From Frigoribacterium endophyticum (GTDB lineage Bacteria; Actinomycetota; Actinomycetes; Actinomycetales; Microbacteriaceae), in the NCBI RefSeq assembly GCF_011759585.1, contig NZ_JAAOYV010000003.1, forward strand, positions 1-64,000: a DNA stretch of 64,000 nucleotides, written 5' to 3'. Within the stretch, counting starts at the first letter, position 1; the number at the start of each line of letters is the position of its first letter. Positions 2,512 through 63,486 of the stretch are shown here, in pieces. Position numbers and translations under genes: made by a program. The notes beneath the pieces are model-generated. The model was given only the letters and a program-made list of their open reading frames with translations. It was not told the origin of the DNA and made no database searches.

Positions 2512-2575
2512 CCCGAACCCCGTTCTCGCACGCGAACCCCGCCGCGGCGGGGTTCCCGTGCGAGAAGAGGGTGTC
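2512..2575. repeat. Dispersed nested palindrome, copy 1 (CCCC subfamily)
   Basis: A long palindrome between the convergent heme oxygenase and helicase genes. The outer arm reads CGAACCCCGTTCTCGCACG and the inner arm CGAACCCCGCC around a central CCGCGG. The right outer arm is degraded past TGCGAGAA. Related copies lie at 6288, 12682, 13446 and 63424. It may also act as a bidirectional terminator here. Confidence 0.85.
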
Positions 2576-2614
2576 TGCGGGAGCGGGGCGCCGCGCGGGA
2601 GCGGGCGCGGCGCG

Positions 2615-3946
2615 CTACGCGGTCGCGGCGTCCTCGGCGGCGCGGATCGCGGGCACGCGCGTCGACTGGCTCATGAAGCGCCGCACGTCGAGGTCGACGA
2701 TGATGTCCGCCGGCCGCAGCGGCCGCGTCAGGTAGAGGCCCTCGAGGGTCGTGATGCGGCTCAGCGCGACGTAGGTCTGCCCCGCGCTGAACACGCGCGA
2801 CCCGAGGTCGACGACCGCGCTGTCGTACGTCTTGCCCTGCGACTTGTGGATCGTCACGGCCCACGCCAGCCGCAGCGGGAACTGCGTGAACTCCGCCACG
2901 ACGTCCTTCTTCAGCTGCTTCGTCGTCGCCGACCACGAGTACGCGAACTTCTCCCACACCGCCGGCTGCACCTCGTGCTCCTCGCCGTCGACCTCGACGA
3001 AGACCGTGTCTCGCACCTTCGTCACCGTGCCGGTCGTGCCGTTCACCCAGCGCTGGTCGGGGTCGTTGCGCAGGAACATCACGCGGGCCCCCGGCTTCAG
3101 CTCGAGCGCGTCGTCGGCGGGGTAGGCCCGGCCGCCGAACTCGCCGCTCACCTCGGCGCGCGCCGTCAGCACGCGCCCGGGCAGCCGCTCGAGCTCGACC
3201 TTGTTGATGCGGGTCACGGTGTCGTTGCGCGTCGCGAGCGTGATCGCCGAGCCGTCGGTCGGAGCGGGCCGCGCCCCGGCCGCGTTCAGCGCCCCGGCGA
3301 TCTCGGCCGTCACGCGCCCGTGCCGCACGGCGTTCAGCATCTCCTTGAAGTCGCCCGCCGTCTGCCGGTGGATGAACGCCAGCTCGTAGATGCGCAGCGA
3401 GGCCTCCTGCCAGACGTGCGCGTCGAAGAACCACATCGACCGGTAGTTGTCGCGGAAGTACGACTTCTCCTCCAGGTCGCCCGGCACCGGGGGCAGCTGG
3501 TACGGGTCGCCGAACAGCACGACCTGCACGCCGCCGAACGGCTCCGAGCGGCGCTGGCGCGCCTGGCGCAGCGAGCGGTCGATCGCGTCCATCAGGTCGG
3601 CGTTGACCATCGAGACCTCGTCGATGACGAGCGTGTCGATCGTGTTGAGCAGCTTGCGCAGCTCGCTCTTCTGCTCGATGTCGTGGTCGGCGATCAGGCC
3701 GATCGAGAGGCGGAAGAGCGAGTGGATCGTCTGCCCGCCGACGTTCAGCGCCGCGACCCCGGTGGGCGCGCAGATGACGATCTGCTTCGAGGTGTTCCAC
3801 GACAGGTGGTTCAGCAGCGTCGACTTGCCGGTGCCCGCGCGGCCCGTCACGAAGACGTTCTCGCGCGAGTTCTCGATCGCGTCGAAGACGGCCTGCTGCT
3901 CGGCGGAGAGGGCGACTGGCACGGGCGGGACGACCTTCCGGGGCAC
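2615..3946 (-). CDS. Pif1-like superfamily 1 DNA helicase
   Basis: A 443-residue ATP-dependent helicase of the Pif1/Dda/RecD2 group. Motifs in order: Q-motif-like LSAEQQAVFDAI, Walker A GRAGTGKS (about residues 34-41), APTGVAAL (Ia), VIDEVSMV (Walker B, II), FGDPYQLPPV (III) and, near the C-terminus, AVTIHKSQGKTYD with YVALSRI (motifs V and VI). Family members unwind DNA 5' to 3' and remove replication barriers. The protein is short, with only the helicase core plus a small insert. The GTG at 3946 is the only start found before the conserved region but has no good ribosome site, so the N-terminus is less certain. Confidence 0.88.
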   Translation of the reverse strand: MPRKVVPPVPVALSAEQQAVFDAIENSRENVFVTGRAGTGKSTLLNHLSWNTSKQIVICAPTGVAALNVGGQTIHSLFRLSIGLIADHDIEQKSELRKLLNTIDTLVIDEVSMVNADLMDAIDRSLRQARQRRSEPFGGVQVVLFGDPYQLPPVPGDLEEKSYFRDNYRSMWFFDAHVWQEASLRIYELAFIHRQTAGDFKEMLNAVRHGRVTAEIAGALNAAGARPAPTDGSAITLATRNDTVTRINKVELERLPGRVLTARAEVSGEFGGRAYPADDALELKPGARVMFLRNDPDQRWVNGTTGTVTKVRDTVFVEVDGEEHEVQPAVWEKFAYSWSATTKQLKKDVVAEFTQFPLRLAWAVTIHKSQGKTYDSAVVDLGSRVFSAGQTYVALSRITTLEGLYLTRPLRPADIIVDLDVRRFMSQSTRVPAIRAAEDAATA

Positions 3947-4072
3947 GAGGCTGATCAGGGGCGAGGGGGAGGCGCGGCGAGGCCGGGGCGACCGGCCCCG
4001 GCGACCGCGGCCGGAGCACCCAATCTACCCGCGACTCCTCTCGGGCACGGCTCGCCGTGACCTGCTCCGACC

Positions 4073-4078
4073 TATGCT
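4073..4078 (+). promoter_or_regulatory. -10 box TATGCT, leaderless start
   Basis: TATGCT ends 6 nt before the ATG at 4085. No clear -35 is seen. A nearby GTG at 4079 would lie upstream of the inferred transcription start. Confidence 0.5.
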
Positions 4079-4084
4079 GTGGAG

Positions 4085-5083
4085 ATGTCTTCTGCTGTGG
4101 GGGAGAGGAGACCCGCCCTGCGCCGGTGGCCGTTCGTCGCGATCTGGGGCGGGGCCGCCCTCCTCGTCGTGATCGGGTTCGTCGTGACCGTGTCGGCGCT
4201 CAACGCGACCCTCTACGGCGCCGCCGGCTTCGCGCGCGGCTACCTCGACGCCGTCGACCGCGGCGACACCTCGAGCGCCCTCACCCTCGCGGGCGTCGAG
4301 CAGACCGACGAGCTCGAGGACTCCCTGCTCGACGTGCCCTCGCTCGGCGGCCTGGACGACGTGCACGAGGTCTCGCAGCTCTCGCTCGGCGACGGCACGC
4401 GCACGGTCACCCTCGGCTACACGCTCGACGGCGTCGAGGGGCAGTCGCAGTTCGTGCTCACCCGGGCGGGCACGCGGTTCGGCGTCTTCCAGGCCTGGCG
4501 CTTCGCGCAGCCGCCGACGGCCATCCTCAGCGTGACGCCCGAGCACGACCCCCGCTTCACGGTCGACGGCCGCGTCGTCACGACCGCCGGCGGCGACGTC
4601 GCGACGCGCTTCACGGTGCTCGCCCCCTCGCGCTTCGAGCTGTCGCACGAGAGCACCTGGCTCGAGGCGCCGACGGTCGAGGCGAGCGTGCTCGGCGTGG
4701 GCTCGACCTCGTCGGCGACCGTGGCGACCGTGGCCCGCGCCTCCTTCGCGGAGGAGCTGCAGGGCCAGCTCGACGACCAGCTCGACGACACCTGCGTCAC
4801 GCAGTCGGTGCTGCTGCCCGCGGGCTGCCCGTTCGGCCGCCAGGTCGACGACCGCGTCACCAGCGACCCCGTCTGGTCGATGGTCGAGCACCCGCAGCTC
4901 GCCGTCGTGCCGTCGGCGACGCCCAGCCAGTGGCTCGTGCAGGAGACCCCCGGCACCGCCCACCTCGTCGTCGAGGCCCAGTCGCTCTTCGACGGCCGCC
5001 GCTACACGATCGACGAGGACGTCCCGTTCACCGTCAGCTACCAGATGACCATCGGCACGGACGACCAGATCACCTTCCAGTAG
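4085..5083 (+). CDS. Membrane-anchored extracytoplasmic hypothetical protein
   Basis: A 332-residue protein with a short basic N-terminus, one membrane helix (about residues 17-37) and a large extracytoplasmic part made of beta-rich, Val/Thr-rich segments. Two cysteines (in DDTC and PAGCPF) lie close together and could form a disulfide. The segment GYLDAVDRGD after the helix resembles the NTF2-like or DUF4878-like lead-in seen in actinobacterial lipoproteins, but no family is recognised. ATG 4085 is chosen from the leaderless -10 spacing. It has its own promoter, and a LacI gene follows on the same strand after 106 nt. Confidence 0.72.
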   Translation: MSSAVGERRPALRRWPFVAIWGGAALLVVIGFVVTVSALNATLYGAAGFARGYLDAVDRGDTSSALTLAGVEQTDELEDSLLDVPSLGGLDDVHEVSQLSLGDGTRTVTLGYTLDGVEGQSQFVLTRAGTRFGVFQAWRFAQPPTAILSVTPEHDPRFTVDGRVVTTAGGDVATRFTVLAPSRFELSHESTWLEAPTVEASVLGVGSTSSATVATVARASFAEELQGQLDDQLDDTCVTQSVLLPAGCPFGRQVDDRVTSDPVWSMVEHPQLAVVPSATPSQWLVQETPGTAHLVVEAQSLFDGRRYTIDEDVPFTVSYQMTIGTDDQITFQ

Positions 5084-5177
5084 CGCTCCGCGGCCGGGGG
5101 GAGTCGCGGGTCGGCCGCCCGGCAGGGCTCCCGCCCCGGTCCCGGCGAACGCCCCGGGTCCGCATCGGCCGCGCTGC

Positions 5178-5183
5178 CATACT
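5178..5183 (+). promoter_or_regulatory. -10 box CATACT, leaderless start
   Basis: CATACT ends 6 nt before the ATG at 5190. Flanking CATCGGC (5162-5168) and GCCGATG (5186-5192) form an inverted repeat around it, a possible autoregulatory operator. Confidence 0.45.
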
Positions 5184-5189
5184 GTGCCG

Positions 5190-6239
5190 ATGATCCCGGG
5201 CGACGAGCAGGCTGGCGCGCTGACGGGGGCCTCCGCGGCCCCCCGAGCAGCCGTGACGCTCGTCGACGTCGCCGCCCGCGCCGGCGTCAGCCTCAAGACC
5301 GCGTCGCGCGCCGTGAACGGCGAGCCGCACGTCGCGGAGGAGACGAGGAGGCGCGTGGTCGAGGCCGCCGACGCCCTCGGCTTCCGCCTGAACAGCATGG
5401 CCAGCATGCTGCGCCGCGGCATCCGCTCCAGCGTGGTCGGCTTCGTCACCGGCGACCTCGCCAACCCGTTCTACGCGGCGATCGCGTCCGGGATCGAGCA
5501 GGAGCTGCGGGGCCACGGCATGCAGCTCGTCGTGGCCAGCACCGACGAGGACCCGGTGCGGGAGCGCGAGCTGGTCGACGAGCTCGTCTCGCGCCAGGTG
5601 CGGGCGCTCGTCGTGGTCTCGACCCGCGCCTCCCACGCGGAGCTCGCCTCGGTGCAGGAGCGCGGCGTCCGCGTCGTGCTCGTCGACCGGCCGCCGGTCG
5701 GGCTCGAGGCCGACACCGTGCTGCTCGACAGCGTCGTCGGAGCCCGCACGGCCGTCGAGCACCTGCTCGCCCACGGGCACCGGCGGATCGGCTTCGTCGG
5801 CGACTTCTCGCGGCTCTCGACGCACCACGAACGCCTCACCGGCTTCGGCGAGGCGATGACCGCGGCGGGCGTCGACGACTGGCGCCGGTGGGTGCGCGAG
5901 GACCGGCACGACGCGGCCTCGGCCCGCTCGGGCGTGAGCGACCTGCTCGCGCTGCCCGAGCCTCCCACCGCCCTCTTCGCGAGCAACAACCGCGTCACGA
6001 CGGGCACGCTCTCGGCGCTGCGCGGCCTCGCGGTGCCGCCGGCGCTCGTCGGCTTCGACGACTTCGACCTCGCCGACGTGCTCGGCGTGACGGTCGTCGC
6101 GCACGACACCGTCGAGATGGGGCGCCAGGCGGCGCGGCTCGCCCTCGCGGCGGGGGAGCCCCCGCGGTGCGTCGTGGTGCCGACCCGGCTCGTGCCGCGC
6201 GGCTCGGGCGAGGTCGCGCCCGGCGTCAGCTGGCGCTGA
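5190..6239 (+). CDS. LacI-family transcriptional regulator (GH92-adjacent)
   Basis: A 349-residue regulator. The helix-turn-helix is at about residues 20-40 (VTLVDVAARAGVSLKTASRAVN), followed by the hinge helix region MASMLRRG and a periplasmic-binding-protein-like effector domain ending with VGFDDFDLADVLGVT. It is convergent with the GH92 gene, whose promoter carries a LacI-type palindrome at 12485, so it is a natural candidate repressor of that enzyme; this is inference from position. ATG 5190 is preferred over GTG 5184 because of the -10 spacing. The effector is unknown. Confidence 0.88.
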   Translation: MIPGDEQAGALTGASAAPRAAVTLVDVAARAGVSLKTASRAVNGEPHVAEETRRRVVEAADALGFRLNSMASMLRRGIRSSVVGFVTGDLANPFYAAIASGIEQELRGHGMQLVVASTDEDPVRERELVDELVSRQVRALVVVSTRASHAELASVQERGVRVVLVDRPPVGLEADTVLLDSVVGARTAVEHLLAHGHRRIGFVGDFSRLSTHHERLTGFGEAMTAAGVDDWRRWVREDRHDAASARSGVSDLLALPEPPTALFASNNRVTTGTLSALRGLAVPPALVGFDDFDLADVLGVTVVAHDTVEMGRQAARLALAAGEPPRCVVVPTRLVPRGSGEVAPGVSWR

Positions 6240-6287
6240 CGCGCCGCCGCTGCCCGCCGCCGCACGCCGCTGCCCTCTGCCGCACTG

Positions 6288-6352
6288 ACGAACCACGTCC
6301 TCGCAGCCGCACCACGCCGCGGCCTGGTTCGGCGGCGAGGACGTGGTTCCTC
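6288..6352. repeat. Dispersed nested palindrome, copy 2 (CCAC subfamily)
   Basis: Between the convergent LacI and GH92 genes. Outer arms ACGAACCACGTCCTCGC and GGCGAGGACGTGGTTC are nearly perfect complements; the inner arms ACCACGCC and GGCCTGGTTC surround CCGCGG with slight decay. Confidence 0.88.
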
Positions 6353-6387
6353 GTCGCGGCCGCGACCGGCGCGGGCCCGGCGGAACG

Positions 6388-6421
6388 GCAGAGACCCCCG
6401 TGCGGGCACGGGGGTCTCTGC
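6388..6421. terminator. Perfect 16-bp hairpin between convergent genes
   Basis: Arms GCAGAGACCCCCGTGC and GCACGGGGGTCTCTGC enclose a GG loop. It lies 46 nt past the GH92 stop and 149 nt past the LacI stop, so it can serve both. There is no T-tract. Confidence 0.8.
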
Positions 6422-6466
6422 GGTCAGGGTGAGCGGGGCGGCGGGACTCGCCCGCCGCCCCGGCCG

Positions 6467-9400
6467 CTAGGCGTCGTCGCCGACGGCCAGCAGGTGGCGG
6501 CGCCGACGTCGCGCCGCCTCGATCGCCAGGGCGAGCGCCCCGGCGGCGAGCAGCACGCCGGCGACGAGCCCGCCGTCGACCGGCGACCCAGGCCGGCCGC
6601 CCGTGTAGGCGAGCGACCCGTCGTACGAGCCAGGACGCAGCGGGGCCACGCCGGTCGCGGACGGTGCCGTGTCGACCACCGAGAAGGCGACGCGGACGGC
6701 TGCCTGCGACGTGCCTCCCAGGGCCTCGACCTCGTGGGCGCCGGTCGCCGCGCCGGCCGGCACGGTGAACGAGCCGGTGACGAGGCCGTCGGCGCCCGCG
6801 GTGAGGGTGCCGAGCGCGATCGGGTCGCTGAACAGCGTCAGCGAGACGGTCTCGCCGGGCGCGAAGCCCGCGCCCTCGACCGGCACCACCGTGCCGCGGG
6901 TGGCGGAGTCGGCGAGCACCCGCAGCGAGGGCGTCCAGGCGCCGGGGCCGCCGGGGTTGCCGGGGTCGCCCGGGTTGCCCGGGTTGCCGGGGTTCCCGGG
7001 GTCGCCGGGGTTGCCGGGGTTCCCGGGGTTGCCGGGGTCGCCCGGGTTGCCGGGGTTACCCGGGTCGCCCGGCTCCTCCGGCTCGACCGGCGCCGCCGCG
7101 ACCGTGACGGTGGTCGTCGCCGAGGCGCTCGACCGCCCGTCGTCGACCGTGACCGTCACCGTGTACGTGCCCGGCAGCGCGTAGGTGTGCGCTCCCGAGA
7201 CGACCCCGCCCGCGACCGTGCCCGCGGTGACGGCCGTGCCGTCGCCCCAGTTCACGGTCGCCGTCACGGCGCCGTCGGCCGCGTCGCCGACGCCGCCCGT
7301 CACCGTCGCGAGCTCGCCCGCGACCTCGACGCCCGCCGTGCCCGTGAGGCCCGCGGCCGTCCCGGTCACCACGAGGTCGGCCGGGGGCGCGAGGCGCGTG
7401 CCGTCGGTCGCCAGCGCGAACACGTGGATCCGCCCGGCGGCCCGCGGGTCGCCCGTCTGCACCGGCAGGGTCAGCGAGACCGCCGTCTTGCCGGTCGGCA
7501 GCGTGACCGGGGCCGTGGCGTAGACGCCCGCCACCGCTCCGTCCGAGCCGTTCGCCCCGTTCGTGCGGCCGTCCGAGGTCGCGACGACGACGTTGCCGAA
7601 CGCCGGGGCGGTGACCCCGGCCGTCCAGTCGCCGAACTCGATCGGGAACGGCTGCGTCGAGCCGTCGTCGAAGGTCAGCGTGCCGACCGTCTGCTGGGCA
7701 CGCTCGTTCGCCGTGCCGATCACCGACAGCTGGGTGACGTCGTCGCCGAGCTCGAGCGGCAGCACCTGGCCGGCGCCGGTCGCGTTGTCGGGCTCGCCCG
7801 CCGGGATCGCCGGCAGGTCGAACGTCAGCGCGGTGCCGGGCACGGCCACGGTCGTGCCCTGCACGAAGCCCTTCTCCGCGAGCGACTGCCGCTTCAGCCC
7901 GTTCTGCAGGTAGTCGCAGTTCGCGGCCTGGCCCGGCTCGCCGAGGCAGACGCTGTCGAAGGCGCCGACCAGCGAGGGGGCGGTGCGGGTCACCACGACG
8001 TCGGCCGTGGTCGACGCCGACTCGGTGCCGTCGGTCGCCGTGACGATCGCCGTGTAGGTGCCCGGCGCGTCGAACACGTGCGCCGGGGCCGTGACGTCCC
8101 AGCCGCCGAGGGCGGTGGGCGTGAGGGCCGCGCCCTGCGGGCCCTCGCCGTCGAGCCAGTCGACCGTCGCGGTGAGGCCCTCGGGGGCGTCACCGCCGCC
8201 TCCTGCCCCGCCGGAGGCGCGGGTCACGGTCGCGACGGAGCCCGAGAACTCGGCCCCCGCCTCGCTCGTCAGGCCCGGCTTGCCGGTCAGCGTGAACTCC
8301 CCGGCGGGTGCCGTGGTGTCGGCCATCAGCTCGAGCTCGGAGAGCGTCATCGCGCGCCCGTCGGTCGTGCCGGTGGCCGTGAGGCGGTACCAGGTGAACG
8401 GCCGCGGGTCGGTGACCGTGAACGGCCTGGTCTGCAGCGCGGACGGGAACGTCTGCGCGGTGCGCTCGTCGAGCGGCAGCCAGGTGGTGCCGTCGGTCGA
8501 GCCCTCGAGGGCCCAGCCGGTCGGCGCCGCCGAGCCGTCGGGGCCGTTCGTCAGCGTGTAGCGCGAGACCGTGACCGGCCCCGACGCCGAGCGCCAGGTG
8601 ACCGCCGCGTCGGGCGCGTCGAAGGCGACCGCGGTGCGGGCCGAGTCGTCGGCGAGGCGGTCGACGACCGTCCCGTCGCTCGAGCTCAGCACGCCCTGGC
8701 CGGCCGTCGTCGCGTCGACGAGGGGCACCGGCACCTCGACGGGCTCGGGGGCGTGCGCCGCCCACGTGCTCGGCCGGGTGCCCATCGTCAGGTCGAGCAC
8801 GCCGCCGGCCGCGACGTCGTCCTGGCTGAGCGAGACGGTGTCGATCGCCGCGCCGTTCAGCCGGGCCGACTGCACGTACACGGCCTCGTTCGAGTTGCCC
8901 TCGGCGCGCACCGTGAACTCGTGGCCCGACCCGAGGTGGATGGTCGCCTCGTCGAACAGCGGCGAGCCGATCGTGTACGAGTCGGTGCCCATGGCGAGCG
9001 GGTAGAAGCCGAGCGCCGAGAACAGGTACCACGACGACATCTCGCCGTTGTCCTCGTCGCCGGGGTAGCCCTGGCCGATGTCGCTGCCGACGAAGAGCCG
9101 CTGCGTGATCTCGCGGACGACGCGCTGCGTGGTCGCGGGGTCACCGTTCGCCGCCGAGACGTAGGGGATGTGGTGCGAGACCTGGTTGCTCATGCCGAGC
9201 TGCCCGATCCGGACGTCGCGCGCCTCCAGCATCTCGTGGATGACGCCGCCGTACCCGCCGGGCTTGTCGGCGTCCTCCGGCGTGGAGTAGAACTCGGCCA
9301 GCTTGGCGTCGAGCCCGTCCGAGCCGCCGTAGAGCGCGGCCAGGCCGGCCACGTCGAACGGGGCGTGGAAGGCGAAGTTCCAGCCGTTCGTCTCGGTGTA

Positions 9401-12382
9401 CGCGCCTCCCCACGACTCGGGGTCGAAGGTGTCGGGCGACTCGGCGAAGGTGCCGTCGGCGTTCCGGGCCTGGAAGAAGCCGACCGCGGGGTCGAACAGG
9501 TCCACGTAGTCGCGCGACCGGTCGAGCAGCCAGGCCGACTCCTCCCTCAGCTGCGCACGCCGCGCCTCCGGGGTGGCCGGGTCGTCGGCGAGCGCCGCCG
9601 CCATCCGGCCGAGCCCGAAGTCGTTGATGTTGCCCTCGAGGCCCCACGAGACGCTCTCGCCGGTGCTCGCCGGCGTGTAGCCGAGGAAGAGCGACTGGTC
9701 GAGGCCCTTCCGGCCGACGCCGCTCTCGGTGGGCTGCACCGACGCGTTCTTGAGCGCGGCGTCGTAGGCCTCGAGCGCGAGGTCGCCGCTGACGGCGCCC
9801 TTCAGGTAGGAGTCGGCGAACGCGACGTCCGAGCTGGTGCCGGTCATGAGGTCGGCGTAGCCGGGGCTCGACCAGCGCGCGATCCAGCCGGAGTCGCGGT
9901 ACTGCTGCACGAAGCCGTCCATGAGCTCGCTCGCGACCTCCGGGTAGAGCATCGAGTAGGCGGGCCAGACGGTGCGGTAGGTGTCCCAGAAGCCGTTGTT
10001 GACGTAGATCTTGCCGGCCTTCACCTGCGCGTTCGTCGTCGTGTCGGTCGCCGCGCCCTCCTTCGGGGCGACGGGGCTGGCGTAGCGGTAGTCGGGCGCC
10101 GAGGCCGTGCCGGTGTTCTCGAACTGCGAGTTCGGGTACATGTTGAGGCGGTAGAGGCTGCCGTAGAGGGTGGCCAGCTGGTCGTCGCGGGCCCCCTCGA
10201 CGGTGATGACGCCGAGGCGGTCGTTCCAGAGCTGCTCGGCGGCGCCGCGCACCTCGTCGAAGCTGCGGCCGGTCACCTCGAGGTCGAGGTTGCGCGTCGC
10301 CTGCGCGGCCGAGATGAACGACGTCGCGAGGCGCAGCTCGACGACGCCGGCGGGGCTGTCGCCGCTCGGCGCCGTGGCGTCGAAGGAGGCGTAGCGGGCG
10401 CCGTCGCGGTCGCCCGCCGCGGTGCCGACCGAGGTGGGCGTGCGGTCGAACGTGCCGGAGACGAACATGCGGCTGGCGCCGGTCGAGAGGCCGGAGCCGT
10501 TCTCGACCCAGCCGCTGACGCGGCCGTCGGCCGAGACCGTGAGGCCCGAGCTGCCGGCGACGCGGTCGACGATGACGCTGCCGGCCCGGGTGGTGCTGCC
10601 GGGGTCGGTGCCCGCGGTCTCGGGGAAGGCGAAGCGCAGCACGGCGCCGTGGTCGGTCGGCGTGACGGCGGCCTCGAGGCCGCTCGTGGTGGCGACGCTG
10701 TAGAGGTCCGGTCGCGCGACCTCGGCCCCGTGGTCGAACTGGAGGGCCCGGGTGGCGAGCGAGGCGTCGGGCGCCCCCGCGCCTCCCGCACCCGCGACGG
10801 TGGTCGAGGGGAGGATCGCGAGCTGGTTCCGGTCGCCCATCCACGGGCTCGGCTCGTGCGAGACGCCGAGGCCCTGCAGGCGGGGGAGGTTCTGCGCGTC
10901 GTTGCCGCGGGCGTAGTCGTACAGCCACGACTGGCTCGACGCGTTCGTCATCGGGGTCCAGAAGTTGAAGCCGTTCGGCACGGTGGCCGCCGGGACGTTG
11001 TTGCCCCGCGAGAAGCCGCCGGTCGCGTTGGTGCCGCGACGCGTGTCGACGTGCGCGACGAGGCTGCTGCCGTCGACGCGGGCGGGCGCCGGGTCGAGGT
11101 CGAGGTCGTCGACCCAGCCCTGGAAGCGCGTGTCGGCCGTGCCGCCGTCGTTGTCGTAGGTGAACAGCACGCGCTCGACGGTCTGGCCGGCCAGGTCGCC
11201 CAGGGGCACCTGCACCGAGTTCCACTGGTCGGCGTAGAGGATCTTCGCGGCGCCCTGGTCGGCGGCGGAGGTGCCGCCGCCCTGGCCGTCGACGACGCCG
11301 TCGGCCGCGCTGACGAGCGAGCCGTCGCTGAGCTGCAGGTCGACGGCGGCGTAGGTGGCCGGGTACTGCAGGTCGCCGCCGAGCTCGGGGAAGACCTTGT
11401 ACGAGAAGACGGTGTCGTCGCCGATGAGCAGGTCGAGGTCGTCGTAGAGCACGTTCGTGGCACGGGCGGGGCCGTCGGTCGCGTGCTCGCCGGCGTATCG
11501 CAGCGAGCGGGTGCCGCTGAAGCCGGCGCCCGGCTTCATGTTCGGGCCGCTGACCGGGCCGGTGCCGACGACGGTCACCATCGGGCCGGCCGGAGGCGCG
11601 GTGTCGGTCCCGTCGCCCAGGCTCCAGTCCGCGAGCTGGGTCAGCCCCGCGCCGGCGTTGGCCGTGATGTCGAGGCGGTACGCGTCGTACGCCCCGGGCG
11701 TGGTGACGGCGTACTCGTTCGTGGCGCCGCGGCTCGCGAAGGTGATGCCGCTGAGGGTCGTGATCGGCGTCCAGGTGGCTCCGCCGTCGGCCGAGCCCTG
11801 GAGGGTCACGTCGCGGGGGTCGCGGGTGGGGGCGTCGCCGCCGCTGGTGAGCGAGAACTCGGCCGCGGTCTGCGGCGAGTCGAGCAGGTAGGTGATCGAG
11901 GCGGTGCGCTCGAAGGCGAGCCACTTGCTCGCCGCGTTGCCGTCGGTGAGGTTGATCGCGACCTCGCCGGGGGCGTTCTCGGCGGTGGCGGTGACCTCGG
12001 TCACGTGGCCGAGCAGGCTGCCGGCGGGCAGGCCGGTCGAGCCGGAGACGTTCTCGCTCGGGGCGACCGCGGCCGACCCGGGGTCGACGTCGGTGAGGGG
12101 CGTGCTGGCGAGCGGCTGCGCGTCGGCGGCCTCGAAGCTCGTCCGCCAGTCGCTGCCCGCGACCGCGGCGGCGCGGGCGTCTCCGCCGCGGGCGTCACCG
12201 GAGCTGCCGGAGCCGCCCGGTGCGGCGGCCGCGGGCCCGGCGCCGGTGAGGGCGCCCGTGACGGCCAGGGCGATCGCGGTGGTGATCACCCCCGCCCGTC
12301 GTGCCTGCTGCTTCGCGGAACTCCGTCTCCAGCTCGCGCCCCTGCGCTGCTGCTCGTCCGTGCGGACACGACCTGACGCCAT
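6467..12382 (-). CDS. Cell-wall-anchored GH92 alpha-mannosidase, multidomain
   Basis: A 1971-residue exported enzyme. Order: long basic signal peptide (cleavage after AAAA, about residue 55), discoidin/F5-8-type beta-sandwich (about 105-260), GH92 domain (about 450-1200) with the signature [21 protein letters not shown] near residue 1110, a second F5/8-like module (about 1220-1350), Ig/PKD-like modules including [11 protein letters not shown], a collagen-like Gly-X-Y linker (about 1770-1813), another beta module, then LAYTG near residue 1925, a membrane helix and an RRRRR tail. GH92 enzymes are Ca2+-dependent inverting exo-alpha-mannosidases. LAXTG is the signal used by class E sortases, so it should be covalently attached to the wall. 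ATG 12382 has AGGAG 7 nt upstream. LacI-type palindromes lie about 93-116 nt upstream of the start. Confidence 0.93.
6944..7072 (-). repeat. Tandem repeat encoding a collagen-like linker
   Basis: A degenerate 9-nt tandem repeat inside the GH92 gene encodes about 14 Gly-X-Pro triplets of the types GDP, GNP and GGP. Such linkers space a catalytic head from the wall anchor. Repeat number may vary between strains. Confidence 0.9.
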
Positions 12383-12474
12383 CGTCACTCTCCTGCTGTC
12401 GACCCGTGATCGGGGGTGCGGCGGCCCGGGGGCCTGCCGCCGGCCGCTGGTACGGCCGAGCACGACGACGACGC

Positions 12475-12498
12475 CTGTCATCGATGACAGCGTTGTCA
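12475..12498. promoter_or_regulatory. Overlapping palindromic operators upstream of GH92
   Basis: CTGTCATCGATGACAG (12475-12490) is a perfect palindrome. It overlaps TGACAGCGTTGTCA (12485-12498), one mismatch from the classic LacI-family operator TGACAACGTTGTCA. Both lie upstream of the GH92 start at 12382. A LacI-family repressor, perhaps the one at 5190, is the likely ligand. Confidence 0.75.
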
Positions 12499-12681
12499 TG
12501 CACGTGTTCTTTCTACCCCCGCCCGGGGGTGGTGGTCAAGGTCGGCGGCGCGTGCCGCGGCCCGGCGGCGGCCACCTGCCTCACCGAGGTGCCGCGTTCT
12601 GGGCCCACGCCACCGCCGAGGCCCCAGATCGCGTCGTCCCGCCGCGGCAGCGGGCTCGCGCGGCCCGCGTCGCCCCGCGAG

Positions 12682-12743
12682 GCACCACGTCCTCGCACCG
12701 GAACCACGCCGCGGCGTGGTTCGCAGGCGAGTACGTGGTTCGT
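12682..12743. repeat. Dispersed nested palindrome, copy 3 (CCAC subfamily)
   Basis: In the divergent GH92/YdeI gap. Outer arms ACCACGTCCTCGC and GCGAGTACGTGGT; inner arms GAACCACGCC and GGCGTGGTTC around CCGCGG. Its right end lies 17 nt before the -10 box of the next gene. The rest of this 389-nt gap (12383-12771) holds the operators above and nothing else recognised. Confidence 0.88.
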
Positions 12744-12759
12744 CCCGCGCCGCACCCGC

Positions 12760-12765
12760 TACCGT
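12760..12765 (+). promoter_or_regulatory. -10 box TACCGT, leaderless start
   Basis: TACCGT ends 6 nt before the ATG at 12772. Confidence 0.4.
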
Positions 12766-12771
12766 CGCCCC

Positions 12772-13344: not shown

Positions 13345-13346
13345 CG

Positions 13347-13440
13347 CGGGCGCCCGGCGCCCCGCCGCGCACCCGGCGCCCCACGCCCGGCGCCCGGCGC
13401 CCCGCGCCCCGCGCCCCGCGCCCCCGCGCCCGCCCCGCAC
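13347..13440 (+). repeat. Low-complexity G/C-only tract
   Basis: About 94 nt after the YdeI-like stop made almost only of G and C. Its right half (from about 13398) is a tandem array of the heptamer GCGCCCC and relatives. No gene is seen; slippage or strong secondary structure is likely. Confidence 0.8.
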
Positions 13441-13445
13441 CGACG

Positions 13446-13510
13446 ACGAACCCCGTCCTCGCACCGGAACCCCGCCGCGGCGGGGTTCGAGTGCGAGAAC
13501 GGGGTTCGGG
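13446..13510. repeat. Dispersed nested palindrome, copy 4 (CCCC subfamily)
   Basis: Between the convergent YdeI-like and mmsB genes. Outer arms CGAACCCCGTCCTCGCAC and GTGCGAGAACGGGGTTCG; inner arms GAACCCCGCC and GGCGGGGTTC around CCGCGG. It is the best preserved member of its subfamily. Confidence 0.9.
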
Positions 13511-13559
13511 AGCTCGACGCAGGCGGCCGGGCCGGCCCCGGGGGGCCGACCCGCGCCTC

Positions 13560-24254: not shown

Positions 24255-24295
24255 CCCCGAGGAGTCGCGGGTCGGCCCCCGCAGGCTGCCTCACC

Positions 24296-24337
24296 ACGGA
24301 CGCCGGTCCGGTGCACCCGCACCGGGCCGGCGTCCGT
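24296..24337 (+). terminator. Strong hairpin after the importer operon
   Basis: Arms ACGGACGCCGG-T-CCGGTGC and GCACCGG-G-CCGGCGTCCGT pair over about 19 positions with one central T/G pair and a small loop. Likely operon terminator. Confidence 0.8.
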
Positions 24338-24394
24338 CGTCCGCCCGGGGCACGCGAGCGACGCCGAGGCGACGCGATCTGATGACGGCGAGAC

Positions 24395-24439
24395 GACTCG
24401 ACCTGGGCCCTCGACGGTGCCGTGGGCCCAGTTCGAGTC
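24395..24439. repeat. Inverted repeat in the convergent gap
   Basis: GACTCGACCTGGGCCC and GGGCCCAGTTCGAGTC pair at 15 of 16 positions around 13 bases. It lies between the importer terminator and a tandem array. Role unclear; a second terminator is possible. The whole gap 24255-24624 contains no gene, only these hairpins and repeats. Confidence 0.7.
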
Positions 24440-24450
24440 ACCTCGTCCCG

Positions 24451-24523
24451 GCGAGGGCGCGAGGGCGCGAGGCGCCCGAGGTGCCCGAGGTGCCCGAGGC
24501 GCGGGAGTCGCGGGAGTCGCGGG
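24451..24523 (+). repeat. Degenerate 9-bp tandem array
   Basis: About eight 9-nt units: GCGCGAGGC, GCCCGAGGT (twice), GCCCGAGGC, GCGGGAGTC (twice) and relatives. The last units merge into the recurrent 13-mer GGAGTCGCGGGTC (24513-24525). Non-coding. Confidence 0.8.
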
Positions 24524-24549
24524 TCACCTCGCGCGGGCCCGCGCACGCC

Positions 24550-24584
24550 GGAGGGGGCGGCGCCTCCACAGCACCGCCCCCTCC
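24550..24584 (-). terminator. Hairpin downstream of the GH3 gene
   Basis: GGAGGGGGCGG and CCGCCCCCTCC pair around 13 bases, 40 nt past the GH3 stop codon. Likely terminator of the bxl-like operon. Confidence 0.65.
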
Positions 24585-24624
24585 GTCCCCTCGCCCCCGC
24601 GCACCACGGCGGGGGCCCGGTGCC

Positions 24625-48345: not shown

Positions 48346-48402
48346 CCCGCAGCCCGCCCGCGAGGGCGGCGACCCGCCCACTCCCTCGAGCTCTGGGGGT
48401 GC

Positions 48403-48465
48403 GGCGGGTTCCTGTCCTCCTGGGCGGGTCCGCGAGGGCCCGCCGGTGAGGACGGCGACCCGCCG
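48403..48465. repeat. Nested palindrome after purB, divergent relative
   Basis: Outer arms GGCGGGTTCCTGTCCTC and GAGGACGGCGACCCGCC with inner arms GGCGGGTCC and GGGCCCGCC around GCGA. A further partial arm GGCGACCCGCC lies at 48368. The layout, in which inner and outer arms share one sequence, mirrors the five-copy family but the sequence differs. It may terminate purB. The gap 48346-48525 holds no gene. Confidence 0.65.
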
Positions 48466-48502
48466 ACTTCGGCTCAGGTCAGGGGAAGAGCTGGGCGCGT
48501 AC

Positions 48503-48536
48503 GGGGGCTCAGTGGCCGCGGGGGCTCAGTGGCCGC
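48503..48536. repeat. Perfect 17-bp tandem duplication across a stop codon
   Basis: GGGGGCTCAGTGGCCGC is repeated back-to-back (48503-48519 and 48520-48536). The second copy carries the last codons and TGA of the 48526 gene. This looks like a recent slippage event. Confidence 0.85.
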
Positions 48537-51621: not shown

Positions 51622-51632
51622 GCCCGCCCGCA

Positions 51633-51682
51633 CACGACGACGGCGCCGTCACCTCGGAGGAGGTGGCGGCGCCGTCGTCGTG
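51633..51682. terminator. Very strong bidirectional hairpin
   Basis: CACGACGACGGCGCCG and CGGCGCCGTCGTCGTG pair perfectly, and CACCT/AGGTG extends the stem after one mismatch. It lies between the convergent desaturase and idi genes. Confidence 0.9.
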
Positions 51683-51729
51683 CTGCCCGGGGCAGGCCCC
51701 GACAGGGCAGGAGGCGCGGGTCGGCCCGG

Positions 51730-52320: not shown

Positions 52321-52327
52321 GCCCTCT

Positions 52328-57841: not shown

Positions 57842-57847
57842 CGGCCC

Positions 57848-59263: not shown

Positions 59264-59359
59264 GAGTCGCGGATCTGGTCGGCCCGGGCGTGAACGTGCC
59301 AGCGTGGTCACCAGACATCTCGACACCCGCCGTGAGCGGGTCTGACCCAAGGAGCACTC

Positions 59360-60167: not shown

Positions 60168-60472
60168 GCCGGGACGACTCCGGCGACCGCCGTGACGGCC
60201 GCGCCGGTGACGGCGACGGTGCGGGCTCCGACGAGTCCGCCCCGAGCATCCCCGAGCTCGAGCTCGACGTGGCGCGCACCCGCGAGGAGTTCGCCCGCAC
60301 CCTCGACGCGATCGAGGACAAGCTGAGCGTGCCGGCGCACGCCCGCCGCCTCCGCGACAGCGTCTCCCGACGCTGGCACGACGACCCGCGGCCCGTGGTG
60401 GCCGCGGGCGTCGCCGGGGTCGTCGGACTCGCCTCGGTCGTGGCCGGCGTCGTGCGGATCGCCCGACGCTAG
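60164..60472 (+). CDS. DUF3618 protein
   Basis: A 102-residue protein with an acidic N-terminus, the DUF3618 signature ELELDVARTREEFARTLDAIEDKLSVP (about 31-57) and a single C-terminal membrane helix. It accompanies DUF1469 proteins in many actinobacteria; function unknown. GTG overlaps the previous stop (GTGA). Confidence 0.88.
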   Translation: MSRDDSGDRRDGRAGDGDGAGSDESAPSIPELELDVARTREEFARTLDAIEDKLSVPAHARRLRDSVSRRWHDDPRPVVAAGVAGVVGLASVVAGVVRIARR

Positions 60473-60480
60473 GGCCCCGG

Positions 60481-60522
60481 GTGCGGGAGTCGCGGCGCTG
60501 ACCGGCGCCGCGACTCCCGCAC
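60481..60522 (+). terminator. Perfect 18-bp hairpin terminator
   Basis: GTGCGGGAGTCGCGGCGC and GCGCCGCGACTCCCGCAC around a 6-nt loop, followed by a pyrimidine-rich CTTCTCTC. The stem contains the GGAGTCGCGG part of the recurrent motif. The remaining gap to 60632 holds no gene. Confidence 0.88.
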
Positions 60523-60632
60523 CTTCTCTCCCTCCCCACCCCACCTCCAGCCCCCCGCCTGACGGCTGCCCCGTCGCGCTGGCGGGCACGCACCCCTCAC
60601 CCAGGGCGTCCCCCAGAACGAAGGACAACACC

Positions 60633-61808
60633 ATGGCGCAGAGCAGCACCGAGCGCGAGCAGCAGGCTCCCGACCCCGACGACGCGCGCAAGCCCGACAG
60701 CCCGAACGACCTTCGCAAGCCCTCGTGGGGCTACGTGCTCAAGAAGACCCTCCGCGAGTTCACCTCCGACCAGTGCACCGACCTGGCGGCGGCCCTGACC
60801 TACTACGCCGTACTGGCCATCTTCCCGGCGCTGCTCGCGATCGTGTCGGTGCTCGGCCTCTTCGGCCAGGCCGAGGCCACGACGAAGACCATGCTCGAGC
60901 TGCTCACCCAGCTCGGCGGCGGCTCGGTCGCCGAGACGCTGCGCGACCCGATCCGCGAGGTGACCATGTCGCCCGCGGCGGGGATCACCTTCGTCGTCGG
61001 CGTCGTCGGCGCCCTGTGGTCGGCCTCCGGCTACGTCGGTGCCTTCGGCCGCGCGATGAACCGGGTCTACGAGATCGACGAGGGCCGCCCGATCTGGAAG
61101 CTGCGCCCGACGAACCTCGCGATCACGGCCTTCACCGTCGTGCTCATCGTCGTCGCCGGCCTCATCCTCGTGCTGAGCGGCGACGTGGCGCAGGCCGTGG
61201 GCGACGTGATCGGCCTCGGCTCGACGGCGGTCTTCGTCTGGGGCATCGTCAAGTGGCCGGTGCTGCTCGTCATCGTCGTGGTGGTCGTCGCGGTGCTCTT
61301 CTACTTCGCGCCCAACGTGAAGCAGCCGAAGTTCCGCTGGATGAGCATGGGCTCGCTGCTCGCCATCCTCATCTGGATGATCGCCAGCGTCGGCTTCGGG
61401 TTCTACGTCAGCAACTTCTCGAACTACAACAAGACGTACGGCTCGCTCGGTGCCGTCATCGTCTTCCTGCTCTGGCTCTGGATCACGAACAACGCCCTGC
61501 TCTTCGGCGCCGAGTTCGACGCCGAGATCGAGCGCGGCCGCGAGCTCCAGGCCGGCATGGAGGCGGAGAAGGACATCCTCCTGCCGCCGCGCGACACGAA
61601 GCAGAGCGACAAGAAGAGGGCCCAGGAGGCGCAGGACGAGCTCGACGGGATGCGCCTGCGGCAGGCCGCGGCCGCGTCCATCGCCGAACAGGAGGCGCGG
61701 GAGCGTCGCGAGGGCCGCGAGCGTCCCGCGGACGACGACCGGCCCGACGCCGACGCCGACGACCTGCCCGACGGCAAGGAGCGCCGCGAGCGGCGCGACC
61801 GGAGCTGA
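60633..61808 (+). CDS. YihY/BrkB-family membrane protein
   Basis: A 391-residue protein of the YihY/virulence factor BrkB family. After a charged N-terminus, the six-helix core has DLAAALTYYAVLAIFPALLAIVS (about 50-72), LWSASGYVGAFGRAMNRVYEI and YGSLGAVIVFLLWLWITNNALLFGAEFDAE (about 268-297). A long charged cytoplasmic tail (about 85 residues) follows. The transported or sensed molecule is unknown. GAAGGA site before the ATG. Confidence 0.92.
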   Translation: MAQSSTEREQQAPDPDDARKPDSPNDLRKPSWGYVLKKTLREFTSDQCTDLAAALTYYAVLAIFPALLAIVSVLGLFGQAEATTKTMLELLTQLGGGSVAETLRDPIREVTMSPAAGITFVVGVVGALWSASGYVGAFGRAMNRVYEIDEGRPIWKLRPTNLAITAFTVVLIVVAGLILVLSGDVAQAVGDVIGLGSTAVFVWGIVKWPVLLVIVVVVVAVLFYFAPNVKQPKFRWMSMGSLLAILIWMIASVGFGFYVSNFSNYNKTYGSLGAVIVFLLWLWITNNALLFGAEFDAEIERGRELQAGMEAEKDILLPPRDTKQSDKKRAQEAQDELDGMRLRQAAAASIAEQEARERREGRERPADDDRPDADADDLPDGKERRERRDRS

Positions 61809-61846
61809 GGCGTCGGGGCCGGCATGGCCGGTGCCCGATCTCTCGT

Positions 61847-61892
61847 GACCGAGGGCCTCTGAGCGACAGTTGTCGTGCAGGGGCCCTCGGTC
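61847..61892 (+). terminator. Hairpin after the YihY gene
   Basis: GACCGAGGGCC and GGCCCTCGGTC pair around an interior that itself contains CGACA/TGTCG. Confidence 0.7.
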
Positions 61893-61960
61893 GTCGTCCG
61901 TCCCGGGCGCCTCCCGGGCGGGTCGACCTAGCATCGACGTGACCTGGACCGACCAGGCCC

Positions 61961-61994
61961 GACCTGACTTGACCTGACTTGACCTGACCTGACC
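61961..61994 (+). repeat. GACCTGACTT tandem repeat
   Basis: Two exact decamers followed by GACCTGACCTGACC, essentially a pentanucleotide array, 21-54 nt before the next start. Possible slippage site in the leader. Confidence 0.8.
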
Positions 61995-62014
61995 GCGTCA
62001 CCCGAGGGGGCACC

Positions 62015-62500
62015 GTGCTCGAGCGCCTGGCCGGCCTGCCGTTCGGCGGGCTCGTGGCGGCGCTGTTCGCGATCGTCGTCTGCCGGGCCCAGGCGACCTA
62101 CTGGTTGGCGCGGGGCGCGCGACGGGGAGCCGCCTCGACGAGGTGGGGCCGCTGGGTCGACGGGCCGGGCGTCGCGCGGGCGTCGCGGGTGCTGGCCCGG
62201 TGGGGGCCTCCCGCGGTCACGCTGAGCTTCCTGACCGTGGGGCTGCAGACCGTGATGAACGCGGCCGCGGGGGCGTCGAGGATGCGGTGGCCCGTGTACC
62301 TCGTCGCGATGCTGCCCGGGTGCGCGGCGTGGGCGCTGATCTACGCCACCGTCGGGTTCGCGGTGCTCTGGGCGGTCGTCGGCTCGGTGGCGGGGTCGCC
62401 GGCCGGTGTGGTCGTGCTGGTGCTGCTCGGGGGCGTGGCAGCGGTCGCGGTCGCGGTCGCGGTGCTCGCGGTGCGACGGCGTCGGGCCCGGGAGGGCTGA
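62015..62500 (+). CDS. DedA-like small membrane protein
   Basis: A 161-residue protein with four hydrophobic segments. WGPPAVTLSFLTVGLQTVMNAAAGASRMRWPVYLVAMLPGCAAWALIYATVG resembles the VTT/DedA core (Phe/Gly/Asn-Ala-Gly-x-x-x-Met), but it is shorter than full DedA. Function unknown. GTG 62015 has a GAGGGGG site. Its last codons and stop lie inside a 46-bp palindrome. Confidence 0.7.
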   Translation: MLERLAGLPFGGLVAALFAIVVCRAQATYWLARGARRGAASTRWGRWVDGPGVARASRVLARWGPPAVTLSFLTVGLQTVMNAAAGASRMRWPVYLVAMLPGCAAWALIYATVGFAVLWAVVGSVAGSPAGVVVLVLLGGVAAVAVAVAVLAVRRRRAREG

Positions 62501-62531
62501 TCCACTCCGGAGTGGATCAGCCCTCCCGGGC
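62486..62531. terminator. Perfect 46-bp palindrome overlapping a stop codon
   Basis: Two 23-nt arms (beginning GCCCGGGAGGGCTGATCC on the left) with no spacer at all; the centre is CCGG. The TGA of the DedA-like gene (62498-62500) is within the left arm, and the right end is 22 nt from the stop of the convergent PEP-mutase-family gene. It probably terminates both. Confidence 0.9.
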
Positions 62532-62552
62532 GTCACCCGGTCTGGGCGCGGC

Positions 62553-63350
62553 TCAGAACGAGAAGCCGAGCTCCGCCGGGTACTCCTCGCGGGCGGTGAG
62601 GCGGGTCGCCGCGTCGCGGAGGTGCGACAGCGTCAGGCCCATCGACATCGGCCCGAAGCTCACGCGCGAGACGCCGAGCTCGGCGAGGCGGGCGAGCGGC
62701 ACCGACGTCGGCCCCGAGATCACGCTGATCTTCCCGTGGATCTCGTCGAGGGCGCGCTTGACGAGGTCTTCCGTGCCGAGGCCGAGCACGAAGGCGCAGT
62801 CGGCCCCCGCGTCGAGGTAGGCGTTGGCGCGGGTGACCGCGTCGTCGAAGCTGTCAGGGTCGCCGGCCAGGGCGTCGACCCGGGCGTTGACGACGATCGG
62901 CACGCCCGCGCGGTCGCCGGCGCGGCGGGCCGCGGCGACCTTCGAGACCTGGGTGTCGATGTCGTAGAGCGGGGCCTTGGCCTGGCCGATGCTGTCTTCC
63001 AGGTTGAGGCCGGCGGCGCCCTCCTCGATGAGGCGGAACACGTTGTCGAAGGTGCCCGAGGCGTCGGTCGCGTAGGCCTTCTCGAAGTCGACCGAGACGG
63101 GCAGGTCGACCGAGCGGACGATGATGCGGGCGGCGGCGAGCATCTCGTCGACGTCGAGCCCCTCGCCGTCCTCGACGCCGTGCGCCTCGGAGATCGAGTG
63201 GGAGGCGGTGGCCAGGGCCTTCACGCCCGGTGCGCCGGCCACGACGCGGGCGGTGATGCTGTCCCAGACGTTCGTGACGATCAGCGGGTCGCCCGGCACG
63301 TGCAGCGAGCGGAGGAGGTCGGCCTTCTCGGCCGTGGTGGAGATGGACAT
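62553..63350 (-). CDS. Isocitrate lyase/PEP mutase superfamily enzyme
   Basis: A 265-residue (beta/alpha)8 enzyme of the PEP mutase/isocitrate lyase superfamily. Diagnostic parts are NVWDSITARVVAGAPGVKALATASHSI (about 28-54), VSVDFEKAYATD (Mg-binding, where DxEtGYG is common), GAAGLNLEDSIGQ (about 115-127) and VNARVDAL. The catalytic Cys of isocitrate lyases is absent, so it is not an isocitrate lyase; 2-methylisocitrate-lyase-like or unknown C-C/C-P activity is possible. ATG 63350 is the conserved start. Confidence 0.88.
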   Translation of the reverse strand: MSISTTAEKADLLRSLHVPGDPLIVTNVWDSITARVVAGAPGVKALATASHSISEAHGVEDGEGLDVDEMLAAARIIVRSVDLPVSVDFEKAYATDASGTFDNVFRLIEEGAAGLNLEDSIGQAKAPLYDIDTQVSKVAAARRAGDRAGVPIVVNARVDALAGDPDSFDDAVTRANAYLDAGADCAFVLGLGTEDLVKRALDEIHGKISVISGPTSVPLARLAELGVSRVSFGPMSMGLTLSHLRDAATRLTAREEYPAELGFSF

Positions 63351-63423
63351 GCCCCCAGCCAAGCAGCCCCGGCTGGGCGGCACCAGCCCCCGGCCGGGCG
63401 GTCTCGCCGCCCGGCCGTGCTCA

Positions 63424-63486
63424 CGAACCACGTCGTCGCAGGCGAACCACGCCGCGGCGTGGTTCGCGTGCGACTTCGTGGTTCGC
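63424..63486. repeat. Dispersed nested palindrome, copy 5 (CCAC subfamily)
   Basis: In the divergent gap before the last gene. Outer arms CGAACCACGTCGTCGCA and TGCGACTTCGTGGTTCG; inner arms GCGAACCACGCC and GGCGTGGTTCGC around CCGCGG. Nothing else is recognised in 63351-63606. Confidence 0.9.

What the first reader, a model, noticed from the sequence alone, without database searches (positions are those of the whole stretch)
2512..63486. Five-copy family of nested intergenic palindromes
About 63-bp elements at 2512, 6288, 12682, 13446 and 63424 share one design: an outer arm (CGAACCxCGTCCTCGCA), an inner arm (GAACCxCGCC), a central CCGCGG, then the reverse. Inner and outer arms begin with the same GAACCxCG, so either arm can pair with either partner and the DNA or RNA can form two different folds. 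I know of no named family with this design. Position is always intergenic, three in convergent and two in divergent gaps, which argues against a pure terminator role. A REP/REPIN-like mobile element or a protein-binding site is plausible.
Basis: partly seen in the sequence, partly recalled or inferred. Interest (0 to 1): 0.85.

Follow-up and report, generated by a model that had tools for sequence, protein, structure and literature searches.

The report
Repeated intergenic hairpins, probably mobile terminators
The five palindromes belong to a family of about 62-letter hairpins found in every genome searched of one bacterial genus, multiplied separately in each and lying mostly behind genes, where they may act as stop signals for gene reading; they look like a new variant of known small repeats rather than the two-way folding switch first suggested.

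Summary
The five palindromes are real; the genome has 43 close copies (46 by model, 57 by a looser frame). All 16 genomes of the genus searched carry the frame GNACCxCG-11-GNACCxCG-6-mirror (705 places, reversed-pattern control 0). Of 73 genomes outside it, one has a set (12 places).

Letters between the boxes are genome-specific: 116 of 116 elements from three genomes have their closest relative in the same genome. Y1_Tnp (RAYT family) was found in 0 of 16; no target-site duplications were seen.

Copies favour convergent and co-directional gaps (7 of 116 divergent; but 6 of 36 in a fourth genome). Unrelated hairpins lie in 4 of the 5 other convergent gaps of the window. One orthologous gap has a strong hairpin in 10 of 12 species, with differing letters. 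Alternative folds are 18-34 kcal/mol weaker, so the two-fold switch is not supported.

Best reading: a REP-like repeat without RAYT whose hairpin works as a U-tract-less, often bidirectional terminator. Spread within genomes is well supported; the terminator role is inferred. Against it: stems diverge as fast as flanks between close species, 11 relatives lack such a palindrome in one gap, and some genes carry it in frame.

The parts
2514..2575 (.). family element, x=C type, convergent gap 2489-2614 (heme oxygenase / PIF1-like helicase)
   Evidence: (MFE -46.6, z -7.6); no element in 11 congeners with what looks like the same neighbour
6289..6350 (.). family element, x=A type, convergent gap 6240-6466 (LacI-type regulator / GH92 protein)
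   Evidence: (MFE -48.4, z -8.5)
12681..12742 (.). family element, x=A type, divergent gap 12290-12771, 29 bp before the called start of an OmdA-domain gene
   Evidence: (MFE -39.0, z -5.7)
13447..13508 (.). family element, x=C type, convergent gap 13345-13559; best match to the family model
   Evidence: (MFE -53.8, z -9.0)
63424..63485 (.). family element, x=A type, probably divergent gap (PEP mutase on - / LTD-like frame on +)
   Evidence: (MFE -52.5, z -9.2); start of the + gene uncertain
6385..6424 (.). unrelated hairpin in the same convergent gap as the 6289 element
   Evidence: z -6.8
24288..24345 (.). unrelated long hairpin in convergent gap 24255-24624
   Evidence: z -7.0; not reported
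24387..24447 (.). second unrelated hairpin in gap 24255-24624; resembles 12585-12644 in inverted orientation
   Evidence: z -5.6; not reported
48402..48465 (.). unrelated hairpin in convergent gap 48346-48525
   Evidence: z -6.8
51629..51686 (.). unrelated long hairpin in convergent gap 51622-51729
   Evidence: z -11.9; not reported
60473..60530 (.). unrelated hairpin just behind a plus-strand gene, co-directional gap 60473-60632
   Evidence: z -7.4
62486..62531 (.). 23-bp perfect inverted repeat at the convergent junction 62501-62552, overlapping the end of the + gene
   Evidence: z -10.6

Best explanation
The elements are copies of a REP-like dispersed repeat without RAYT: one long hairpin of about 62 nt (26 paired positions in the model, in two segments of 17 and 9) on a frame of four GNACCxCG boxes. 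Shown: copies are dispersed, genome-specific in sequence, mostly behind genes in three of the four genomes examined, and the two arms of a copy match each other better than arms of other copies. Inferred: copies spread within a genome by a process that was not identified, and they are kept behind genes because the transcribed hairpin ends or blocks transcription (a U-tract-less terminator or 3'-end barrier that would work from both sides in convergent gaps). New copies would replace or add to older hairpins, so that the position stays while the letters change. I give about 0.9 to a dispersed within-genome family and about 0.55 to the terminator role.
For: 43-57 copies in this genome by three searches; 16 of 16 congeners, 705 places, control 0. 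Closest relative in the same genome for 116 of 116 elements. Context over three genomes: 46 convergent, 60 co-directional, 7 divergent, 3 undetermined or in-gene; in co-directional gaps 39 of 60 are nearer the upstream stop, medians 98.5 and 198.5 bp. Window: 3 of 8 convergent gaps have a family element and 4 of the other 5 an unrelated hairpin (19 of 25 stem positions, arms may overlap gene ends; the seven unrelated gap hairpins fold with z -5.6 to -11.9); none of 8 family-free divergent gaps has one. One orthologous gap: hairpin with z -4.1 or lower in 10 of 12 species, of different sequence, in G012 without box match. Eight elements from two orthologous gaps: 93.8% of cells paired, 21 double-change cells against 8.0 in shuffles, 0 of 500 as high; weaker on two other measures (38 and 23 of 500). 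Arms of the same copy match better than in any of 1000 within-genome shuffles in all three genomes over 28 positions, though G001 and G002 hold several letter sets, which helps this. Classic U-tract terminators are not in excess in the first 20 kb (4 found, 3.0 in shuffles).
Against: Between close species G004 and G005 elements differ at 45 of 2046 sites and flanks at 159 of 6291 (33 ungapped pairs of 40 rows), with 36 single and 1 double stem change. Gap 2489-2614 has no palindrome of this size in 11 congeners (16-20 of 31 positions matched, 25 here). Six or seven copies of this genome are in divergent gaps, and in G005 6 of 36 (7 of 49 divergent gaps hold one). Elements lie in frame in three genes of G000, G004, G005 and G010, and one of 12 in G046 is called in a gene. 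No U-tract (T fraction 0.16 in the 8 nt behind, 77 elements). Counting only hairpins wholly inside the gap, 2 of 5 family-free convergent window gaps qualify; 5 of 17 hits are inside genes. The G-U over A-C excess expected for RNA (105 to 66) comes mainly from G001 (66 to 33); here it is 12 to 15. Within this genome the number of pairs with double changes does not exceed shuffles (9 against 8.9). No expression data.
Confidence: 0.55

Rival explanations
1. Selfish palindromes with no host function: they spread by an unknown route and survive where they do least harm, that is behind genes and in protein linkers.
For: Genome-specific sets (116 of 116), orthologous gap without element in 11 congeners, tandem clusters, in-frame copies in three genes, stems diverge as fast as flanks between G004 and G005.
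Against: Hairpins of unrelated sequence occupy equivalent convergent gaps; one gap keeps a hairpin through a change of letters in 10 of 12 species.
Confidence: 0.3
2. Double-stranded binding site for a dimeric or tetrameric protein that reads the GNACCxCG boxes.
For: The boxes and their 19-nt spacing are what the genus shares; x is the same in all four boxes in 38 of 43 copies here; positions 11 and 12 of the stem often do not pair.
Against: Outer and inner x differ in several species; a hairpin persists without box match in G012; letters between boxes change on both arms, which a box-reading protein would not need.
Confidence: 0.1
3. Non-autonomous MITE of an insertion sequence whose transposase is encoded elsewhere.
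For: Palindromic, dispersed, short.
Against: No target-site duplication over offsets -6 to +8 and lengths 2 to 9; no recurring neighbour family among 151 distinct flanking proteins except LacI-type regulators; all 81 half-element matches belong to the 43 elements (checked by hand; one truncated half near contig 2 position 1372870 is below that threshold). An unlinked transposase cannot be excluded.
Confidence: 0.12
4. Two-state switch in which inner and outer arms exchange partners.
For: Shared GNACCxCG in both arms; four-way agreement of x in this genome.
Against: Alternative pairings 18-34 kcal/mol weaker; agreement not kept in best hits of G002, G003, G009.
Confidence: 0.03

Closest known systems
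REP / REPIN with RAYT (PMC3733652: abstract, section list and 12 passages; PMC3116915: search listing and start of abstract)
   Same: Dispersed extragenic palindromes, species-specific, clusters, mostly between unidirectional and convergent genes; here 23-115 places in 15 of 16 genomes, 6 in one.
   Different: One 62-bp hairpin instead of 20-40 bp units; no GTAG in the consensus; no Y1_Tnp in 16 of 16 genomes.
CGTC REP superfamily (PMC3733652, passages)
   Same: Palindromic repeats apparently without dedicated transposase; GACG stands at 22 of 86 ends here.
   Different: Published stems are 8-9 bp with 4-5 nt loops and an unpaired tag; the phyla listed there do not include Actinobacteria.
Untagged REP-like repeats, e.g. 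those cited for M. tuberculosis, Bordetella and Brucella (PMC3733652, Discussion passage; not read further)
   Same: REP-like and without terminal tag; M. tuberculosis is also an actinobacterium.
   Different: Not compared here; sequence and architecture of those families were not seen.
Rickettsia palindromic elements (recalled; named in PMC3733652 passages)
   Same: Palindromic element that can sit in frame inside protein genes (that property recalled).
   Different: No sequence comparison made; here in-gene copies are the exception.
Hairpin terminators without poly-U, single or clustered (PMC8355165: abstract and section list)
   Same: Hairpins close behind stop codons, often clustered; a section heading says poly A/U trails are not necessary.
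   Different: There predicted hairpins in general; here many share one repeated frame.

Membership tests
REPIN/RAYT | cognate RAYT (Y1_Tnp, PF01797) in the genome | tested here: not met
   0 of 16 congeners at E 0.001; control rings in 5 of 14 known genomes
REPIN/RAYT | two short REP units in inverted orientation with GTAG tag | tested here: not met
   8 of 8 folded 62-mers form one nested hairpin; no GTAG in the consensus
REP-like repeats in the broad sense | dispersed, mostly extragenic, palindromic, multi-copy | tested here: met
CGTC REP | 8-9 bp stem, 4-5 nt loop, unpaired CGTC tag | tested here: not met
   26 model pairs; GACG at 22 of 86 ends only
IS-derived MITE | target-site duplication | tested here: not met
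   no offset or length clearly above shuffles
IS-derived MITE | parent IS with matching ends | tested here: inconclusive
   no recurring transposase-like neighbour; no whole-genome IS survey was made
intrinsic terminator | GC-rich hairpin behind a gene | tested here: met
   for most copies
intrinsic terminator | U-tract after the hairpin | tested here: not met
   T fraction 0.16 in 77 co-directional elements; none of the four window elements in the first 20 kb is flagged
intrinsic terminator | transcription ends there | not testable with these tools
   no RNA data
Rfam family | match at gathering score | tested here: not met
   0 matches in the window

The most novel reading that the evidence does not exclude
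Mobile terminators: a self-spreading family of bidirectional, U-tract-less transcription terminators that multiplies in each species of a genus without a RAYT, takes over hairpin sites behind genes, and keeps a fixed box frame while both arms are rewritten together, perhaps by hairpin template switching or conversion between copies.
Probability: 0.3. Interest if true: 0.75.

Novelty: new variant of a known kind. Interest (0 to 1): 0.5.

Why it matters
REP-type repeats are usually explained by RAYT transposases. A genus in which each of 16 genomes searched carries such repeats and none shows a Y1_Tnp protein asks how they spread and why they persist. If they are terminators, they show regulatory punctuation spreading as a repeat, and give a tractable set (orthologous gaps with and without copies, near-identical species pairs) for testing whether repeat families are kept for their effect on transcription.

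Tried and rejected
Two-fold switch: rejected by fold energies and box divergence. RAYT: not found. Target-site duplication: none. Linked enzyme gene: all-against-all comparison of 151 distinct flanking proteins gave 15 pairs; only LacI-type regulators recur, no transposase-like family. Exact inner core in GTDB genome contigs: 15 stretches, none of which carries the frame around it (15-22 of 31 positions palindromic), so taken as short chance or unrelated palindromes; own and very near genomes may be left out of that collection. RNA-strand signal: suggestive only. Insertion boundaries in the close pair G004/G005: in the stretches compared most copies are shared; several differ by partial deletion or flank length, no clean insertion seen. 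Solved structures: the linker holding the in-gene copy of the ABC protein is longer than in the closest homologue 8wd9_D (about 69 against 36 residues), consistent with an insertion but no proof; for the glycosyltransferase the alignment did not cover the element.

Limits: gene calls come from my own codon-usage script trained on the window, used also on other species. The frame scan has fixed spacing, so copies with indels are missed. Loci outside the window were chosen for elements; G004 and G005 gaps are partly the same. Synteny at 2489-2614 was judged by eye. One search uses 116 of the 705 genus places. One search pools two gaps; related sequences can exceed its shuffles without structure. 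In the table three contig coordinates (138941, 384058, 704200) are wrong by 27 bases because I reversed loci that were already on the plus strand; sequences and gap types are not affected. The half-frame pattern has a high control in some congeners (for example 9 against 12 in G013, 11 against 22 in G008), so I rely on the full frame (control 0 in the genus; 1 in each of two genomes outside it).
Full report
Observation. The inner core is found five times in the window against 0.11 expected. In the whole genome (G000, 3.32 Mb, six contigs, window = contig 3, 1-64000) a half-element pattern matched 81 times with 0 control matches, a scan of fetched stretches gave 43 elements, a covariance model built on 42 of them (one with an indel left out) gave 92 matches at 46 places, and the looser frame gave 57.

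Anatomy. The consensus half is close to S-G-M-A-C-C-x-C-G-T-Y-S-T-C-G-C-A-3-G-A-A-C-C-x-C-G-C-C-G, then its mirror. ACC of the boxes, TCGC and the centre are nearly fixed; positions 11, 12 and 18-20 vary, and pairs 11 and 12 are broken in 12 and 17 of 41 distinct copies. x is A or C and is the same in all four boxes in 38 of 43 copies. The five window copies and three others that I folded form one nested hairpin, -39.0 to -55.7 kcal/mol, z -4.3 to -11.2. Enforced outer-with-inner pairings in the five window copies give -15.8 to -30.2 kcal/mol, 18 to 34 weaker than the normal fold, so the proposed two-state design is not competitive.

Distribution. With the covariance model 14 of 16 genomes of the genus matched at E 0.001, the others at clearly lower scores than the own genome. 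The best hits showed why: the frame of boxes with a 19-nt repeat is kept, but the letters between them differ between species. With the half-frame pattern the 16 genus members have 2 to 52 matches, but the reversed-pattern control is high in some of them; the other 133 genomes of family and order are near control (149 genomes). With the full frame and up to 3 mismatches, 16 of 16 congeners have 6 to 115 places, 705 in all, control 0; of 73 genomes outside the genus six have a match, five of them one place each, and only G046 a set of 12; two of the 73 have one control match. The G046 copies have the same length and 19-nt spacing but altered boxes; of 12, 7 are in convergent, 2 in co-directional and 2 in divergent gaps (near-identical neighbours) and 1 is called in a gene.

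Copying inside genomes. For 50 elements of G000, 46 of G001 and 20 of G002 the most similar other element is in the same genome, 116 of 116; tandem neighbours are included, which helps the result in G001, where arrays of three or four are common, and only three genomes were compared. G000 also has clusters, one of five elements in a single 533-bp convergent gap. The gap 2489-2614 behind a helicase gene present in all 16 genomes has this element in G000 only; 11 congeners with what looks like the same convergent neighbour have no element and no palindrome of this size; four have another neighbour, and two of those (G011, G015) show a different palindrome there. Y1_Tnp was found in none of the 16 genomes, there is no target-site duplication and no recurring transposase-like neighbour. 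How the copies spread stays open.

Position. By my gene calls G000 has 24 convergent, 18 co-directional and 6 divergent elements and 2 undetermined or in-gene; G002 9, 11 and 0; G001 13, 31, 1 and 1 undetermined. G005, from the stretches fetched, has 12, 17, 6 and 1 in-gene. The window's own gaps of 80 bp or more are 7 convergent, 13 co-directional and 9 divergent. So convergent gaps are favoured and divergent ones avoided in three genomes, less clearly in the fourth. This agrees with what was reported for REPs (PMC3733652, abstract).

Other hairpins. A scan for 25-position stems found 17 places in the window at 19 or more matches: the five elements, five inside genes, and seven unrelated hairpins in gaps. 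Six of these seven are in convergent gaps (one of them beside the 6289 element) and one is in a co-directional gap; three shuffles of the window gave one hit in all. They cover four of the five convergent gaps without family element; none of eight family-free divergent gaps has one. All seven fold well, z -5.6 to -11.9; the repeat finder, given six of the gaps involved or near, reported only some of them. Counting only hairpins wholly inside a gap with at least 16 of 20 stem positions, family-free gaps with a hairpin are, in the window, 2 of 5 convergent, 5 of 16 co-directional, 0 of 8 divergent; pooled with fetched loci 25 of 51, 22 of 128 and 6 of 83, against 0.5, 1.1 and 1.3 from base-composition shuffles. 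Apart from the window these loci were picked for elements, and G004 and G005 overlap.

Orthologous gaps. Two were followed. Gap A lies between a LacI-family gene and an operator-like GAAACGTTTC site. The gene behind it was found in 12 of 16 genomes. Ten of these 12 have a hairpin there with z -4.1 or lower; eight match the frame, in three clearly different letter sets; G012 keeps a hairpin of -57.5 kcal/mol without frame match; G001 has a weaker unrelated hairpin (z -1.9); G000 has none (z -1.1). Gap B, behind another gene, has an element in 5 of 16 genomes. Across eight elements of the two gaps 93.8% of cells pair and double-change cells exceed all 500 shuffles, two other measures less strongly. 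This is the strongest evidence that the hairpin is kept while letters change, although new insertion at a favoured site or conversion between copies could give the same picture.

Results that go the other way. In the close pair G004/G005 the elements differ about as much as their flanks (45 of 2046 against 159 of 6291) and nearly all stem changes are single (36 to 1). Some copies are partly deleted in one species (L240:9058). The wobble test for an RNA role is positive overall (105 G-U, 66 A-C, p 0.0035) but carried by G001 (66 to 33); G005 gives 23 to 14, G000 12 to 15, G002 4 to 4. There is no U-tract. Elements occur in frame in three genes: a fused ABC ATPase of G000 between its two ABC domains, another fused ABC ATPase of G004 with two copies between the domains, and a glycosyltransferase-like gene of G004, G005 and G010. 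A strong terminator inside a gene would have to be kept open by translating ribosomes, which is inference.

Judgement. A dispersed, genome-specific repeat family is established by these counts. A terminator or 3'-end barrier role is the best single account of position, of the unrelated hairpins in equivalent gaps and of gap A, but no expression data were available, and a selfish repeat tolerated behind genes explains much of the same. Membership in RAYT-driven REPINs and in the CGTC superfamily was tested and not met, so it is filed as a new variant of REP-like repeats.

Literature. PMC3733652: abstract, section list and 12 passages. PMC8355165: abstract and section list. PMC2267715: three passages. 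PMC3116915 and the other papers listed: search listing and start of abstract only. Eight searches showed no description of this family; most subscription papers are not held. Rickettsia palindromic elements inside genes and template switching at hairpins are recalled.

Noticed in passing
L195:1180-2874 (G000 contig 2, about 201927); L246:926-2941; L250:4523-6097, L271:4538-6088, L070:681-2138: Family elements lie in frame inside protein genes: two fused ABC ATPases (between the ABC domains; two copies in the G004 gene) and a glycosyltransferase-like gene shared by G004, G005 and G010.
   Followed up: partly
window 12585-12644 and 24386-24445: A second repeated sequence with GGGCCCA, 83% complementary between the two places, one in a divergent and one in a convergent gap; the second copy is a hairpin.
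   Followed up: partly
window 6923-7111: Tandem 9-bp repeats in the GH92 gene; the protein has a collagen-repeat match.
   Followed up: no
L201, L207, L208, L211, L213, L215 (G001): Arrays of three or four elements in one gap; G001 has 115 frame places, the most in the genus.
   Followed up: partly
L278-L288 (G046, another genus of the family): Hairpins of the same length and 19-nt spacing with altered boxes, 7 of 12 in convergent gaps.
   Followed up: partly
L240:9058 against L261: A copy whole in G004 is mostly deleted in G005, consistent with palindrome instability.
   Followed up: partly
L153 (G001), gap A: A long-stem hairpin without boxes at the place where most other species have a hairpin.
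   Followed up: no
gap A, e.g. L148, L155: Operator-like palindrome with GAAACGTTTC before the downstream gene, seen in the genomes compared at gap A.
   Followed up: no
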